Below the pieces are notes generated by a model. That model was given only the letters and a program-made list of their open reading frames with translations. It was not told where the DNA came from and made no database searches. DNA of 49,838 nucleotides, from NCBI RefSeq assembly GCF_900107195.1, contig NZ_FNPB01000018.1:1-49838 (forward strand). Reading direction: 5' to 3'. The DNA comes from Halobellus clavatus (GTDB taxonomy: Archaea; Halobacteriota; Halobacteria; Halobacteriales; Haloferacaceae). Numbering within the stretch: the stretch's first letter is position 1; every line of letters starts with the position of its first letter. A program made the translations under genes and the position numbers. Below, piece by piece: positions 478 to 20,359 of this stretch.

Positions 478-553
478 GCCAAGGTGGCAGAGTCTGGCCG
501 AACGCGTCCGCCTGCAGAGCGGATCATCGCCGGTTCAAATCCGGCCCTTGGCT
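478..553 (+). tRNA. tRNA-Cys (anticodon GCA)
   Basis: The acceptor stem GCCAAGG pairs with CCTTGGC. The anticodon stem TCCGC/GCGGA encloses the loop CTGCAGA, giving anticodon GCA (Cys). The T arm is GCCGG-TTCAAAT-CCGGC and the discriminator base is T. CCA is not encoded. No intron is seen. A 12-base copy of its 3' end lies at 2564-2575 (see repeats). Confidence 0.95.
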
Positions 554-554
554 T
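543..554 (+). repeat. putative att core inside tRNA-Cys 3' end
   Basis: The 12-mer GGCCCTTGGCTT at the 3' end of tRNA-Cys is repeated exactly at 2564-2575, with further partial identity to the left. The two copies bracket a segment of about 2 kb holding a SWIM gene and a toxin-antitoxin pair, as expected for a site-specific integration at a tRNA 3' end. Confidence 0.45.
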
Positions 555-803
555 TCTACCCTATACCATAAAGGCCCAAGACGACTATGTCTTGGCATAT
601 CTTCGTTTTTGAAAGCGGTATCTCGGGAACACGACAGAAGTTTCAGAAGCACATCCATCGAAGGTCCACAAGCGACGTTCACGGGTGTCTCGCAGTACCG
701 TCGTAGGGACAGATTCAGCGCGTCTCCCTATCGAGTATTTGGGACCGATATCAAAAATGGCCCTTCTCTGTAGACGGTCAGATTTCACCTCGGCTGGGAT
801 ACG

Positions 804-1604
804 TCATCGTCGATCTTTGAAGTCGTCGAGCGCACGTCGGAACTCCTCTTCGTTGATCCGCGGTTCGGATATCGCCTGTGTTTCGAGTACGCTGGCGTAT
901 TGTTCGAATTCGCTGTCGCTTGGGTCGACCGCGAGCACGCAGTCGACGTACCCATCGAGCGCAGACCGCAAGGCCTTGGCGTAGTGATCGTATGCGGCGT
1001 CGATGCGGACGTGGTTGTCGTCGATTCCCTCGAACAGCGCACGGTAGACGGTTGCGGCCGCCCGGTAGCGCTCGCGCTCGCGGTACTGCTCGGCTACTTC
1101 GAAGAAGTGAGCAAAGTCGATGGCCTCTGTAACGACTGGATAGTCCTCGGTGTGCTGGTCGAACAGCTCCTCGATCTCGTCACGGTACTCTTTGACCGAC
1201 TTGCCGCCGTCGCCGAACCGAGCGAGAAACTGCTCCCGTAGGTCCGGGTTTTCGGCGAGTGTATCGCGCACGAACGCGTGTAGGTCGTCGGACGAGACAT
1301 CCTGGATAACCCGTTCGACGCGTTCGCTCTCCTCTTGGAGCGGATCGGCGACGACGTCCAGCAGCACTGCGACGACGTGCTTGCATTCGCCCGCTCCCTC
1401 GTAAGGACACGTACACCGCGCATCGATGGTGTGTTCGCCTAGATCGACGGTCACGTTGTACAGACTCGTCCCTTGAACCGCGGCTGTAACCACGTCGCCA
1501 AACTGTTCGATTCGCTGAATGCGCCCTTCGTTGCGGTAGTCCCGCCCGCGATCGAACACCGCGTCGGTACAGGTCTCCCGAATTTTTTCGTTGTTGAGGT
1601 CCAC
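804..1604 (-). CDS. SWIM zinc finger protein
   Basis: The 266-residue protein carries a SWIM-type zinc finger near its N-terminus. The ligands are Cys64, Cys66, Cys74 and His76 in a CxC-x7-CxH arrangement, preceded by the typical beta-strand region (VTVDLGEHTIDARCTC). The remainder, about residues 85-266, is acidic and probably alpha-helical, with no domain I recognise. SWIM domains bind DNA or proteins and are found in transposase- and helicase-associated proteins; the exact role here is unknown. The gene runs opposite to the rRNA operon and lies between tRNA-Cys and a copy of the tRNA 3' end, so it may have arrived with the downstream toxin-antitoxin genes. The ATG start gives a compact N-terminus and is preferred. 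Confidence 0.8.
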   Translation of the reverse strand: MDLNNEKIRETCTDAVFDRGRDYRNEGRIQRIEQFGDVVTAAVQGTSLYNVTVDLGEHTIDARCTCPYEGAGECKHVVAVLLDVVADPLQEESERVERVIQDVSSDDLHAFVRDTLAENPDLREQFLARFGDGGKSVKEYRDEIEELFDQHTEDYPVVTEAIDFAHFFEVAEQYRERERYRAAATVYRALFEGIDDNHVRIDAAYDHYAKALRSALDGYVDCVLAVDPSDSEFEQYASVLETQAISEPRINEEEFRRALDDFKDRR

Positions 1605-1648
1605 GATTGGGGAGGACTTGTTGGTCCTGTTCTCGTCCGTTCGCGGCT

Positions 1649-2155
1649 CTATTCATCTAATAGTTCGGTGACGCTCTCGACGGGGGCGTAGTAGCCACGT
1701 TCGTCCCGCCAGACCTCTAGCCATTCGTCCGCGGTTTCGCTGTCGATATGCTCGCGTTTGATGCCGAGGACGAGGAGGCCTATCGATCCAGTGACCGGCA
1801 TATCCAGTTCCGTTGCAAGACGGCGTGCTGCGAGGTCGTCGGTGGCGATCGTCCCGTCGTGTTCAACGGCTCCCCGCAACGCTTCCGTTTCTCCTGGATC
1901 AAGTCGCTCATAGAGGCTCACCCTCCCTATTTCGGGTGGAACGTCACTGACTGCCAGTCCGTTGTCGAACGCCTCGACGGCGCTGGTCAGATACTCGTGA
2001 CCGTGTTTGACTCCCCGTTCAATCTCGTCACGGACTGCGGGTACTACGATCGGAGCTTCGAGTAGGTGAACGAGAAATTTAACCGAGCTCGTACTGGCGA
2101 AATTACTGATGACAGTTGCGTCAGGGAAAACCGGTTGCGGGTATCCGTCCGGCAT
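1649..2155 (-). CDS. PIN-domain toxin (DUF3368-like)
   Basis: The 168-residue protein has the acidic residues of a PIN nuclease: Asp12 in the first strand (FPDATVISNFA), Glu44/Glu46 (RDEIERG), Glu89/Glu91 (DPGETEA) and Asp106/107 (IATDDLAARRLA). The overall pattern fits the DUF3368 branch. Such proteins are predicted ribonuclease toxins that cut RNA until bound by their antitoxin. The start codon follows the antitoxin stop directly (TAG-ATG), so the two are almost certainly co-translated. The upstream partner belongs to UPF0175, the usual mate of DUF3368 proteins. Function is inferred from family and pairing. Confidence 0.8.
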   Translation of the reverse strand: MPDGYPQPVFPDATVISNFASTSSVKFLVHLLEAPIVVPAVRDEIERGVKHGHEYLTSAVEAFDNGLAVSDVPPEIGRVSLYERLDPGETEALRGAVEHDGTIATDDLAARRLATELDMPVTGSIGLLVLGIKREHIDSETADEWLEVWRDERGYYAPVESVTELLDE

Positions 2156-2377
2156 CTATTCGTCGAGGTCGAGTGCAACGTCGATCTCCCGCTGTAACTG
2201 GTCGTCAGTTCGTGGCCCGTAGAGAGACGTGAAGCCAGCGTCTTCCAGCACTTCTTCGAACTCCCATCGGGACAGTCCCGCCGCTTCGGCAGCACGTCCG
2301 AGCGAGAGGTCGCCGAGAACGTACCGACCCACCGCGGTCGCAAGTTCGTCGGAGGACTCACTACTGGAAGAGGCCAT
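2156..2377 (-). CDS. UPF0175 family antitoxin
   Basis: This 73-residue protein has the UPF0175 core LSLGRAAEAAGLSRWEF, a helix-turn-helix-like segment shared by antitoxins paired with PIN/DUF3368 toxins, followed by a short acidic tail (QREIDVALDLDE) that probably wraps the toxin. The ATG at 2377 is preferred to an upstream in-frame ATG at 2431 because family members begin shortly before the helical core and an AT-rich promoter-like stretch (TTATTAG, minus strand) lies just upstream. It would be expected to neutralise the toxin and repress the operon. Confidence 0.8.
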   Translation of the reverse strand: MASSSSESSDELATAVGRYVLGDLSLGRAAEAAGLSRWEFEEVLEDAGFTSLYGPRTDDQLQREIDVALDLDE

Positions 2378-2945
2378 CGTACGTAGTAATCGGATCCACG
2401 GACCTAATAACCTATCGTGGGACGGGGGCACTCATCGACTCACCGGATTGCCATCCAATAGTAATCTAAGACAAAAACATCGATTCATCCGCTATCTGGG
2501 GCGATTTGGAGATATTTCACCTGATGTGATGGCTTATTATACTTAAAACACTGCCTTAATTCGGGCCCTTGGCTTGAATTTTCGATTTACAGTGACGACA
2601 ACCCTCGGGTGCAGCGGGTCTGGAGTCAATCACACAGGCGTCGATCTCAGTTTCGCCCTTTGGGCCGAGGGTGTCAGACGGTTACCTCTTCTACGTATGC
2701 CGGTCGATATCCGACGAAGCGATCGTTACGGAGACCGCGCCATCACGGCGGCCGACTGACTCGACGCCGGCCTCTCGGATTCGATCCCCGGAGCCTGCGT
2801 GACGCTGACGACGAGTGGTCCGTCTCCCCGGTACAGGCGTCGTAGATACACGATATCGAGGAAGTAGACAGTAACGTCCGGAAGCGGGAAGTTCGCCCGC
2901 GCGTTTCAACTTGACCCGATGAGACACCAGTGGTCGTAACGAGAC
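2378..2945. other. intergenic region with tRNA-like repeat and no convincing gene
   Basis: This 568-base stretch holds the AT-rich promoter side of the antitoxin gene, the 12-base tRNA-Cys repeat (2564-2575), and a GC-rich part (about 2690-2930) whose short minus-strand frames do not resemble a known family. The second part may be a decayed gene. I see no RNA gene or complete ORF. Confidence 0.5.
2564..2575 (+). repeat. distal copy of tRNA-Cys 3' end (putative attR)
   Basis: This is an exact copy of the last part of tRNA-Cys (543-554), with 14 of 15 bases matching when extended to 2561. It lies in the same orientation as the tRNA, at the far end of the toxin-antitoxin cassette, beside an AT-rich stretch. 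No integrase gene is present between the copies. Confidence 0.45.
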
Positions 2946-16661: not shown

Positions 16662-18161
16662 TCAATCGCCCTTCGCCGGACGTTCGAGGGTGGGCTCCTC
16701 GACGTCGACTTTCGACTCCGTGAGCGTGCTCTCCCGCCACGTCCCGCGCCGATACCACGCGTAGGCGACGACCGCGCCGACGACGTTCGAGACGGCGAAC
16801 GCGATCCAGATGCCCGTCTCTCCGATCTCGCCGGCGGCGATCCACGCGATCGGGAACCGGACGACGCCGAGCATGAACACGGAGATGGCCGCCGCGGTGA
16901 GCGTCCGCCCCGCCCCGCGGAGGCTTCCCGTGTACGCCCGCATAATCCCGATGAACCCGAAGCTCAGCGCCACGTAGCGGAGGAACCGGGTCGTGACGTC
17001 GACGACGGCGGGATCGGTGGTGAACAGATCCGCGATGGTCGGGGCGGCCATCCACGCCAGGACACCAGCGCCGGTGAGCACGACGAAGAGGACCTTCGCC
17101 GCTAGCCCAGCCGCGGTCGCTGCCCGTTCTGGTTTGTCGGCGCCGACGTTCTGGCCGGTCATCGTCTCGACGCCGCGCGCGACCGCGATGGCGGGCAGGA
17201 AGATGACTGAGAACACGCGCGTCCCGATGCCGTACGCGGCGATGACCGTGTCCGGGAACAGCGCGACGATGACCAAGAGCAGATTCATCGACAGCGCTCG
17301 GCCCGTGCCCTCGACCGACGCCGGAACTCCGATTCGGGCGAGTCGGCGGAGGGACGCGAGATCCGGCGCCATATCGCGGAGCCGGATCTGGACGCCACGG
17401 TTCCCACGGAACATAATCGCCAGCCCGACGACGAGGGCCAGCGCCCGCGAGAACACGGTCGCGACGGCCGCGCCGGTGATGCCCGAGCCAGTGTAGCCGG
17501 TCGCCACGAGCAACGACGCCTCCAGGCCACCGAGCCCGAGCATCCCGAACAGGGGGTTCCCGGCGAACCCGAAGATCAGGAAGGGGTCGAGGACGATGTT
17601 CAACACGACCGACCCGAACATCACGAGCATCGGCGTGATGGTGTCGCCGTAGCCGCGCATCAGCGCGATGAAGACGAAGAAGCCGAACATGAAGACGAGC
17701 CCGAGCGAGATGACTTCCATATAGCTCGTCGCCATCGGGAGGACGTCTTCTGAGGCCCCCAACAGTTCGAGGAACGCGTCGACGCCGACGTAGCCGACGG
17801 CTCCGAGGAGGATCGAACCGACGATCGCAAACGAAACCGTCTGTGAGGCGGCGTACTCGGCTTCGCGCTCCTCGCCCGCGCCAGTGAACTGCGCGACGAG
17901 GACGCTGCCGGCGACGGAGATGCCCATCCCGAGCGAGATCAGCAGAAAGACCATCGGGAAGGCGAAACTGATCGCCGCCAGCGCGTCGGTGCTGTACTGG
18001 CCCAGCCAGAACGTGTCCGCGAGGTTGTACGCCGTCTGGAAGAGGTTCGTCACCACGATCGGCATCGACAGGAAGAACAGCGGCTTCGCGATGTCGCCGG
18101 ACGTGAGATCGAACTCTTCGGGACCCTTGAACAGGGAACTGACCCGATTCAGGAGCCCCAT
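16662..18161 (-). CDS. MATE family efflux transporter
   Basis: The 499-residue protein has twelve predicted helices in two related halves. The first opens with PLFFLSMPIVVTNLFQTAYNLADTFWLG and the second with RRLARIGVPASVEGTGRALSMN, both typical of the MATE (NorM/DinF) family. These carriers export cationic drugs or metabolites, using Na+ or H+. The C-terminus is a charged tail. The ATG at 18161 shares a base with the stop of an upstream 48-codon ORF (TGATG). A TetR regulator gene lies divergently upstream with an inverted repeat between, so the exporter is probably drug-inducible. Confidence 0.9.
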   Translation of the reverse strand: MGLLNRVSSLFKGPEEFDLTSGDIAKPLFFLSMPIVVTNLFQTAYNLADTFWLGQYSTDALAAISFAFPMVFLLISLGMGISVAGSVLVAQFTGAGEEREAEYAASQTVSFAIVGSILLGAVGYVGVDAFLELLGASEDVLPMATSYMEVISLGLVFMFGFFVFIALMRGYGDTITPMLVMFGSVVLNIVLDPFLIFGFAGNPLFGMLGLGGLEASLLVATGYTGSGITGAAVATVFSRALALVVGLAIMFRGNRGVQIRLRDMAPDLASLRRLARIGVPASVEGTGRALSMNLLLVIVALFPDTVIAAYGIGTRVFSVIFLPAIAVARGVETMTGQNVGADKPERAATAAGLAAKVLFVVLTGAGVLAWMAAPTIADLFTTDPAVVDVTTRFLRYVALSFGFIGIMRAYTGSLRGAGRTLTAAAISVFMLGVVRFPIAWIAAGEIGETGIWIAFAVSNVVGAVVAYAWYRRGTWRESTLTESKVDVEEPTLERPAKGD

Positions 18162-19075: not shown

Positions 19076-19178
19076 CCCCATCGAGCGCCCTCGCTCCGCG
19101 TACCGAGGCGTACTGACCAGCCCGGTGCAGGGGATCCGCCACGAAGCGAGACACGGCTCGTTCACACGGATACACCAC

Positions 19179-19195
19179 AAAACGGACCCGACGGG
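19179..19195 (+). repeat. distal copy of tRNA-Arg 3' end (att-like)
   Basis: AAAACGGACCCGACGGG is an exact 17-base copy of 20283-20299, which spans the 3' end and flank of tRNA-Arg. It lies between the TetR gene and the Doc toxin gene, so with 20186-20208 it brackets the toxin cassette. Confidence 0.6.
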
Positions 19196-19337
19196 CGCTG
19201 GTTCGACTGTCGAACGACTTCATCTTTCAGGCGTCAGACGGTCGAAATCGACGTCCTGAAAACGGTGATTTCTGACGTCTCTCACCCGGCCCATCCATAG
19301 CAACATCTACACTCGTGCAGTGTCGAGATTGGAGCGA

Positions 19338-19826
19338 ATGGCCGACTCGTTGTGGTGCCCGTCGGTCGAAGACGTCGTCGCCATCCACGACGACATCGTC
19401 GCGGAGTACTCCGATACTCCCGCCGGTATTCGGAACCGTGGCGACATCGAGTTCGCATTAGACTACATCGAAGCGGGCAGCTTCGACTCCGCACCGGAAA
19501 CTATCCACGAAAAGGCGTTCCACCTCCTCCGATTCCTCGTCGCCAATCACCCGTTCGTCGATGCGAACAAACGGACCGCACTCAACGTGACGGTCGTCTT
19601 CTACTTCCTCAACGGGTATCGGTTCGAGTACGACGACGAAGTGAGAACGATCCTGAAAGAATTCGGGACCGACGAAGCGGCGGTTGATGAGGAGGACACC
19701 ACCAAGTATCTCCGATCCCACACGGAAGAGCTGGATCTGGCCGGCGAGATCGAGGAATGGCGAGAGGAACTCGTCCGGTACGGGCTCGATCAGTTGACCG
19801 GCGATTCCTCGGATCCGAATGATTAA
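19338..19826 (+). CDS. doc: Doc/Fic-family toxin
   Basis: The 162-residue protein carries the Fic/Doc active-site motif HPFVDANKR (71-79), preceded by the usual helical lead-in IHEKAFHLLRFLVAN. Doc proteins phosphorylate elongation factor Tu and stop translation; other Fic proteins AMPylate targets. A start at the ATG 19338 (MADSLWCPSV) matches the family beginning; a GTG 18 bases upstream is possible. The next gene, 25 bases on, encodes a small acidic protein and is the best antitoxin candidate, although in classical phd-doc the antitoxin gene comes first. The cassette is bracketed by copies of the tRNA-Arg 3' end. Confidence 0.85.
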   Translation: MADSLWCPSVEDVVAIHDDIVAEYSDTPAGIRNRGDIEFALDYIEAGSFDSAPETIHEKAFHLLRFLVANHPFVDANKRTALNVTVVFYFLNGYRFEYDDEVRTILKEFGTDEAAVDEEDTTKYLRSHTEELDLAGEIEEWREELVRYGLDQLTGDSSDPND

Positions 19827-19851
19827 CGGCGTTCGACGCGTCCATTCAGGT

Positions 19852-19992
19852 ATGGCCACCGAAGAAGGCGCAGAAACGACCTCCCCGCTTGACGACGTGA
19901 TGGCGGACATCCGGCGGGAACTGGTTCGGCGGGTCGCGGCGGACGACCGAGATTCGAACCGGGACATTTACGACGCTCTCGAAGACGAATAA
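19852..19992 (+). CDS. small acidic protein, putative antitoxin partner of Doc
   Basis: This 46-residue frame (MATEEGAETTSPLDDVMADIRRELVRRV...) has an amphipathic helix (VMADIRRELVRRVAA) and an acidic C-terminal tail (IYDALEDE). It starts 25 bases after the toxin stop and has no other recognised domain. Antitoxins are often this small and acidic. The assignment is based on adjacency only. Confidence 0.5.
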   Translation: MATEEGAETTSPLDDVMADIRRELVRRVAADDRDSNRDIYDALEDE

Positions 19993-20185
19993 CCGGACTG
20001 TACTGAGAGATCGTTAGTCGGATCCGGTCAGAGCAATTAATCCGCGAGAGATTTTCTCTATCGAACCCAGCGTTGCCTGTACGCGATCCCCACCGATGCA
20101 CCACTGAACATCACCTGTCGAACGAAAGCACGCGCCTTGGAGTATTTCGGTGTCGACCCCGCCGCTGTCATACGATGAGAACGAT

Positions 20186-20208
20186 ACGGACCCGACGGAA
20201 TTTGAACC
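20186..20208 (+). repeat. second partial copy of tRNA-Arg 3' end (att-like)
   Basis: Twenty-two of 23 bases match the 3' part of tRNA-Arg (20286-20308), including the T-arm; the copy lies exactly 100 bases from the intact tRNA and has the same orientation. It has no anticodon arm, so it is a remnant, not a second tRNA. Confidence 0.75.
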
Positions 20209-20286
20209 TCGGTCGCTCACTCCGTTCGCTCCCTGCTTCAAATCCCGCAGGTTGCGTTTTCACTACTCACTTCGTTCGCAGGAAAA

Positions 20287-20359
20287 CGGACCCGACGGGA
20301 TTTGAACCCGCGACATCCTGGTCCGGAACCAGGGACTCTGTCCACTGAGCTACGGGCCC
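20287..20359 (-). tRNA. tRNA-Arg (anticodon CCG)
   Basis: On the minus strand, acceptor GGGCCCG pairs with CGGGTCC. The anticodon arm CCTGG-TTCCGGA-CCAGG gives anticodon CCG (Arg). The T arm is GCGGG-TTCAAAT-CCCGT. CCA is not encoded and no intron is seen. Copies of its 3' end at 20186 and 19179 mark it as a probable integration target. Confidence 0.95.

What the first reader, a model, noticed from the sequence alone, without database searches (positions are those of the whole stretch)
19179..20359. Nested copies of the tRNA-Arg 3' end around a Doc toxin cassette
Seen: a 17/17 copy at 19179, a 22/23 copy at 20186 exactly 100 bases from the intact tRNA-Arg, and the Doc plus small acidic gene between the first two. 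The double copy suggests two successive integrations, or one plus a decayed att. No integrase is present. This is the second tRNA-bounded toxin cassette within 20 kb (with tRNA-Cys at 0.5 kb).
Basis: seen in the sequence. Interest (0 to 1): 0.65.

Follow-up and report, generated by a model that had tools for sequence, protein, structure and literature searches.

The report
Integrase-free toxin cassette at tRNA-Arg
A salt-loving archaeon carries a 1 kb toxin gene cassette slotted precisely behind an arginine tRNA gene; the same ends bound many other small gene cassettes behind tRNA genes in related archaea, most without a recombinase gene of their own, which suggests a shared gene-shuffling system.

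Summary
The copies are real. The outer 17/17 match (19179-19195) lies outside chance (0 of 2000 simulations). It ends a 1004-bp unit (19183-20186) holding a Doc toxin and a 46-aa partner. The same unit, 93% identical in Doc protein, directly follows tRNA-Arg(CCG) in another genus whose PepF is only 70% identical; others follow tRNA-Arg(TCG).

The unit belongs to a cassette family with conserved ends: a left end (three boxes in the first ~150 bp) and a 52-bp right end, then a 13-nt tRNA 3' copy. I found 74 such right ends; 62 lack a nearby integrase, 12 sit beside an SNJ2-type integrase and share the same consensus. Of 45 bounded units, 37 lack any integrase piece; cargo varies and units occur in tandem.

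The inner copy (20186) is something else: the end of a ~100-nt tRNA-tail hairpin unit seen behind many tRNAs.

Best reading: a non-autonomous cassette moved in trans by an SNJ2-type integrase. Recombination itself is inferred. No matching integrase was found in this genome, and none beside a CCG-type right end.

The parts
20287..20359 (-). intact tRNA-Arg(CCG), the anchor
   Evidence: ARAGORN; Rfam RF00005
20187..20286 (-). ~100-nt tRNA-tail hairpin unit: hairpin, inverted T-arm copy (about 20234-20247), CAGGGAGC, inner hairpin, GACCGAGG, then a second tRNA 3' end
   Evidence: folds with z -3.48
20186..20208 (-). inner tRNA 3'-end copy (22/23), end of the hairpin unit and left boundary of the Doc cassette
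19183..20186 (-). Doc cassette, 1004 bp, from the base after the inner copy to the end of the outer 13-nt att copy
   Evidence: unit W, size 1004; same boundaries in G029
20038..20186 (-). left end; motif GCTTTCGTTCGACAG at offset 57 and AAAATC box at offset 128 found here; the GCGTACA box is present by eye but below the scan threshold in this unit
19201..19252 (-). right end, 52-bp conserved stretch ending in GTCGTTCGACAGTCGAAC (19201-19218)
19179..19195 (-). outer copy: 13-nt tRNA 3' end (19183-19195) plus TTTT of the chromosomal flank
   Evidence: chance
19338..19826 (+). Doc toxin gene, 162 aa, motif HPFVDANKR
19852..19992 (+). 46-aa acidic partner gene, presumed antitoxin, no family match
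   Evidence: beside Doc on the same strand in 38 of 38 loci
19120..19182 (-). flank beyond the cassette, resembling the flank that follows a tRNA copy without Doc in G002, G040 and G015

Best explanation
The segment is a complete, non-autonomous integrative cassette. Its left end and right end are the recombination sites of a family of haloarchaeal elements that insert at the 3' end of tRNA-Arg genes. A tyrosine integrase of the SNJ2 type, made by another element with the same right end, is proposed to excise the cassette as a circle and to insert it by recombination within the 13-nt tRNA 3' end, so that the tRNA is restored and a partial copy marks the far side. The cargo is a Doc toxin with a small partner, which would kill or arrest cells that lose the cassette and so keep it in place. 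Shown: boundaries, conserved ends, recurrence at two tRNA-Arg genes in several genera, tandem units, integrase linked to the same right end. Inferred: the circle, the trans-acting integrase, the toxin-antitoxin function.
For: Precise unit: same 1.0-kb unit between tRNA-Arg(CCG) and a tRNA copy in G029, another genus; the far copy there ends CGCCCG like that host's tRNA, here GGTCCG like this host's. Horizontal spread: Doc 93% and DNA 88% against G029 while PepF is 70% identical; Doc dN 0.033, dS 0.159. Right end: 18 of 18 Doc loci at 84% identity or more have the motif about 114-120 nt (in one, 413 nt) from the Doc start, against 3 of 20 below 81% (38 loci, best hits rather than a random draw). 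Family: 74 distinct right-end+att sites, 12 with an SNJ2-type integrase start within 260 nt inside and 62 without, one consensus in both groups. Left end: three boxes in 34, 30 and 32 of 37 integrase-less units, 0 of 45 in interior control windows. Tandem units of different cargo at one tRNA: G053, G312 and others. Integrases linked to the right end form one clade (8 of 36 rows, support 100/99), and SNJ2 integrase is 45% identical. Candidate empty sites: flank beyond the cassette matches the flank after a tRNA copy in G002, G040, G015 (3 of 12 compared score above all 200 shuffles).
Against: No integrase with this right end was found in the window's genome: 10 matches, none with the motif within 330 nt of its start; the nearest intact ones are 48-50% identical. 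All 12 integrase-linked right ends carry the Arg(TCG) type of att; none of the 18 CCG-type right ends does, so a CCG-specific helper is not identified; two sister-clade integrases beside a CCG copy have only a partly similar right end. Integrase-bearing units show the left-end boxes less often (4, 3 and 2 of 8). No circular form was seen; exact right-end+att patterns gave 0 hits in viral contigs. 9 of 12 flanks compared do not match.
Confidence: 0.68

Rival explanations
1. Relict: a former SNJ2-type integrated element lost its integrase by internal deletion in each lineage, and what is left is not mobile.
For: The archaeal recombinase review (PMC8371274, passages) says integrase-less integrated elements presumably arose by loss after integration. 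Fragments of integrase remain in 3 of 45 units.
Against: 37 of 45 units have no integrase piece yet keep both ends. The same ~1.0-kb Doc architecture recurs in distant genera with 86-93% identical Doc while a host gene is 68-74% identical. Integrase-less units share left-end boxes better than integrase-bearing ones.
Confidence: 0.2
2. Homologous recombination: the cassette moved as part of larger DNA exchanged between haloarchaea around conserved tRNA genes, and the tRNA copies are by-products.
For: tRNA-Arg with its upstream ferredoxin gene is conserved in 10 of 10 same-genus loci fetched and could serve as homology. Haloarchaea are known to exchange DNA (recalled).
Against: Boundaries lie exactly at the 13-nt copy, and the same unit sits at two different tRNA-Arg genes and in arrays with other cargo.
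Confidence: 0.08
3. The tRNA copies are general degenerate repeats with no link to the toxin genes.
For: 3'-end copies occur downstream of 14 of 41 tRNA genes of this genome.
Against: Those copies lie within 225 nt and, where inspected, end a separate hairpin unit; only Arg(CCG) has a copy further out, and that copy follows the family right end.
Confidence: 0.04

Closest known systems
SNJ2-type (pleolipovirus) integrative elements of haloarchaea
   Same: Tyrosine integrase, short att (13 bp for SNJ2 in the review PMC8371274, passages) at a tRNA 3' end; the right-end-linked integrases are 45% identical to SNJ2 integrase
   Different: Most units here carry no integrase and no viral gene was seen in the ~1 kb cassettes; ends are conserved while cargo changes
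Cis-mobilizable elements (CIMEs) and tandem ICE/CIME accretions of bacteria (recalled; PMC5704250 and PMC7563491 seen in search listings only)
   Same: Integrase-less units flanked by att sites, tandem at one locus, presumed moved in trans
   Different: Here in haloarchaea, ~1 kb, with long conserved left and right ends shared by many cargoes
Integron gene cassettes (recalled)
   Same: Small interchangeable gene cassettes in tandem at one platform, recombinase supplied elsewhere, toxin-antitoxin cassettes among them
   Different: tRNA 3' end as att, no attI/attC pair shown, SNJ2-type rather than IntI integrase, platform is a tRNA gene
Tycheposons of Prochlorococcus (recalled; not found)
   Same: tRNA-targeting elements with small cargo, some without a recombinase
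   Different: Different hosts and recombinase; restore a whole tRNA as I recall it
phd-doc toxin-antitoxin of phage P1
   Same: Doc fold and HxFxDxNKR motif
   Different: Partner is a 46-aa protein encoded after, not before, the toxin and has no match to a known antitoxin

Membership tests
SNJ2-type integrated element | encodes an SNJ2-family tyrosine integrase | tested here: not met
   no match in contig C14
SNJ2-type integrated element | short att copy at a tRNA 3' end | tested here: met
   13 nt, 19183-19195
SNJ2-type integrated element | ends recognised by the integrase | tested here: inconclusive
   right end shares the consensus of 12 integrase-linked right ends, but all of those are Arg(TCG) type; recognition not tested
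Trans-mobilised integrative cassette (CIME-like) | both att boundaries present and no integrase | tested here: met
Trans-mobilised integrative cassette (CIME-like) | a related autonomous element with the same ends exists | tested here: met
   right end: clade; left end only partly
Trans-mobilised integrative cassette (CIME-like) | excision and transfer by a helper integrase | not testable with these tools
   needs bench work
Integron gene cassette | attC site and IntI-type integrase | tested here: inconclusive
   linked integrases score 76 bits or less to XerC and below the integron model cut-off; attC folding was not tested
phd-doc toxin-antitoxin | Doc toxin with Fic/Doc motif | tested here: met
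   motif in 38 of 38 loci, HPFVDANKR in 34 and HPFVDGNKR in 4
phd-doc toxin-antitoxin | Phd-type antitoxin upstream | tested here: not met
   small gene follows Doc by 28-37 nt in 38 of 38 loci; no family match

The most novel reading that the evidence does not exclude
Haloarchaea have an integron-like system: tRNA-Arg genes act as the platform for tandem arrays of interchangeable, integrase-less gene cassettes with common ends, served in trans by SNJ2-type integrases and stabilised by toxin-antitoxin cassettes; the conserved tRNA-tail hairpin units may be accessory, decoy or folded attachment sites of the same traffic.
Probability: 0.3. Interest if true: 0.85.

Novelty: new variant of a known kind. 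Interest (0 to 1): 0.62.

Why it matters
If right, it explains how single genes and toxin-antitoxin pairs move between haloarchaeal genera without an integrase of their own, and gives a testable pair of ends (left end, 52-bp right end, 13-nt core) and a named integrase clade to test. It also shows that tRNA-Arg genes in this class hold arrays that standard island finders, which look for an integrase, would tend to miss. The separate tRNA-tail hairpin family, found behind 17 kinds of tRNA, is unexplained and could be studied in any lab haloarchaeon.

Tried and rejected
Rejected: that both copies come from successive integrations of one element type. The inner copy ends a hairpin unit that occurs without the cassette. 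Rejected: that Doc is always in such cassettes; 17 of 38 Doc loci, all below 81% identity, have no right end.

Led nowhere: exact right-end+att patterns in viral contigs, 0 hits each. Rfam gave only the tRNA and a sub-threshold match. A right-end-linked integrase in the own genome was not found. PADLOC gave only weak partial matches for Doc. Flank comparison failed in 9 of 12 loci. The partner of the PIN protein matched only an implausible family below its cut-off, so I do not name it.

Dropped or biased rows: right-end counts come from loci fetched because they carry the motif or Doc, so they are not prevalence; sites whose att differs by more than 2 from six listed forms were not counted. 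Only 40 of the roughly 130 motif places were fetched with long flanks. Of one search's 71 loci, many are bacterial chance matches and were left out, which used 32. Integrases shorter than 280 aligned residues or with a stop were dropped from the tree. In one search, 22 of the 29 hairpin cores were aligned.

Literature: eight searches listed no paper that describes these cassettes or hairpin units; I read passages of PMC8371274, PMC3119063 and PMC11078007 only. Subscription papers are not held, so absence from print is not shown.

Full report
Observation. The window is one whole contig (C14) of a haloarchaeal genome of 30 contigs. tRNA-Arg(CCG) lies at 20287-20359 on the minus strand. Its 3' end recurs at 20186-20208 (22/23) and at 19179-19195 (17/17). 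Simulated sequence never reached 17.

Control on other tRNAs. Of 41 distinct tRNA genes with enough flank in this genome, 14 have a copy of 12 nt or more of their own 3' end within 1.5 kb downstream and 1 upstream; the upstream one, and one of the 14, are the tandem tRNA-Asp pair. All downstream copies but one lie within 225 nt. The exception is the outer copy of this finding. So the inner and outer copies need separate explanations.

The cassette. Reading away from the tRNA, the outer copy closes a 1004-bp unit (20186 to 19183). In G029, a different genus, the same unit lies directly behind tRNA-Arg(CCG), closed by a copy at +984, DNA identity 88% over 1030 columns. The copy there carries that host's own tRNA ending, CGCCCG, whereas here it reads GGTCCG, again the host's own. 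This is what site-specific recombination inside the tRNA 3' end leaves. Host divergence is far greater: PepF is 70% identical to G029, 68% to G052, 74% to G044 and 69% to G138, against Doc 93, 86, 86 and 87%. Only this genome among the 17 of its genus has a Doc above 70%.

Ends. A search of 391 genomes of the class with the right-end motif (18 nt, up to one mismatch) hit 102 genomes, and the reversed control pattern none in the rows listed. Each inspected site falls into two kinds: right ends, where the motif is followed within a few bases by a tRNA 3' end (Arg-TCG, Arg-CCG, or in G400 Lys), and left ends, where the motif follows the tRNA by about 60-100 nt. From the loci at hand I collected 74 distinct right-end+att sites; 12 have the start of an SNJ2-type integrase within 260 nt inside, 62 do not, and both groups give one consensus over 52 bp. 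Between motif and att, 18 of 18 CCG sites read CAGC or TAGC, while TCG sites mostly read NGGA or NAGA, so the linker follows the target.

Units. Forty-five units could be bounded on both sides: 37 without any integrase piece, 3 with a fragment, 5 with a match of 250 aa or more. Eleven are Doc cassettes, eight of them between 988 and 1044 bp; PIN-protein cassettes recur at 934, 938 and 948 bp in three genomes; a DUF5615/DUF433 pair fills a 1007-bp unit; others carry NUDIX, glyoxalase with methyltransferase, glycosyltransferase, or a P-type ATPase (the ATPase and some others judged by eye). G053 has three tandem units behind tRNA-Arg(TCG), the third being Doc. Left-end boxes were found in 34, 30 and 32 of the 37 integrase-less units and in none of 45 interior windows. 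They are rarer in the eight integrase-bearing units (4, 3, 2), which suggests that the small cassettes are a family of their own and not just recent deletions.

Integrase. The integrases linked to the right end are 79-100% identical to that of Halorubrum halophilum (L168), apart from L270 (61%) and broken copies. The eight intact ones in the tree form one clade with support 100/99 (L270 was not among the rows). SNJ2 integrase is 45% identical. The window's genome holds other SNJ2-type integrases but none with this right end. All integrase-linked right ends found are of the TCG type. Two integrases of 64% identity, one being sister to the clade, sit beside CCG copies with a partly similar right end. 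Thus a helper for the CCG cassettes is plausible but not found.

Cargo. Doc keeps the Fic/Doc motif and the small gene on the same strand 28-37 nt downstream in 38 of 38 loci. dN is well below dS in all 14 comparisons of Doc. The toxin's target is not tested; P1 Doc acts on EF-Tu (recalled).

Site. The ferredoxin gene upstream of the tRNA is conserved in 10 of 10 same-genus loci fetched, while the TetR and MatE genes beyond the cassette are not found there. In G013 a 13.0-kb element and in G014 a 12.7-kb element, each with an SNJ2-type integrase match, occupy the same tRNA. The flank after the outer copy resembles the flank after a copy without Doc in G002, G040 and G015, which I take as likely empty sites; nine other flanks did not match.

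The inner copy. It ends a ~100-nt unit with an inverted copy of the T-arm, a conserved CAGGGAGC, an inner hairpin, GACCGTGG and the second tRNA end. The core pattern occurs in 64 of 145 genomes. Of 38 cores examined, 28 lie within 400 nt downstream of a tRNA, of 17 kinds; the inverted arm fits its own tRNA better than others (9.54 against 8.33 of 11; 0 of 5000 permutations). The structure covaries (22 cells changed on both sides, 9.9 in shuffles), though part of this follows from the arm and the copy both resembling the same tRNA. What it does is unknown; decoy att site, terminator or mobile hairpin are all open.

Verdict. An ordinary-looking Doc gene turns out to be one cassette of a large family with common ends at haloarchaeal tRNA-Arg genes. 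The kind (integrase-less units moved in trans) is known from bacteria; the haloarchaeal family with shared long ends and tandem toxin cassettes I did not find described in eight searches of an open-access library.

Noticed in passing
window 20187-20286; own genome tRNAs Gly, Ser, Leu, Glu, His, Arg; L357-L386: A ~100-nt tRNA-tail hairpin family with an inverted T-arm copy that matches its own tRNA, in 64 of 145 haloarchaeal genomes; not in Rfam.
   Followed up: partly
window 478-2574: tRNA-Cys 3' end recurs as 11-12 nt at 2564, enclosing a UPF0175 gene (2156-2431) and an ORF at 1649-2155 that looks like a toxin partner but has no Pfam match.
   Followed up: partly
G000:C15:7737-7905: A left end of the same element family directly behind tRNA-Arg(TCG) in the window's genome; the element runs off the contig. 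A near-identical left end starts a 5.6-kb integrase-bearing element in G323.
   Followed up: partly
L113 (G053) 17266-17508: An orphan copy of the 46-aa partner gene without intact Doc begins the first, 8.0-kb unit of the array.
   Followed up: no
L356, plasmid pCBA1230-01 of Halolamina sp. CBA1230: Right end and linked integrase on a plasmid where the core CCTGCAG is followed by non-tRNA sequence, so the core may be as short as 7 nt or other targets may be used.
   Followed up: no
relatives behind tRNA-Arg(CCG), e.g. L093, L094, L103, L107: A second, shorter mini-unit of about 54-70 nt ending in the tRNA 3' end (CTCCCCCGACG...TCCCGTCGGGTCCG), also behind tRNA-Arg(TCT) in the window's genome.
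   Followed up: no
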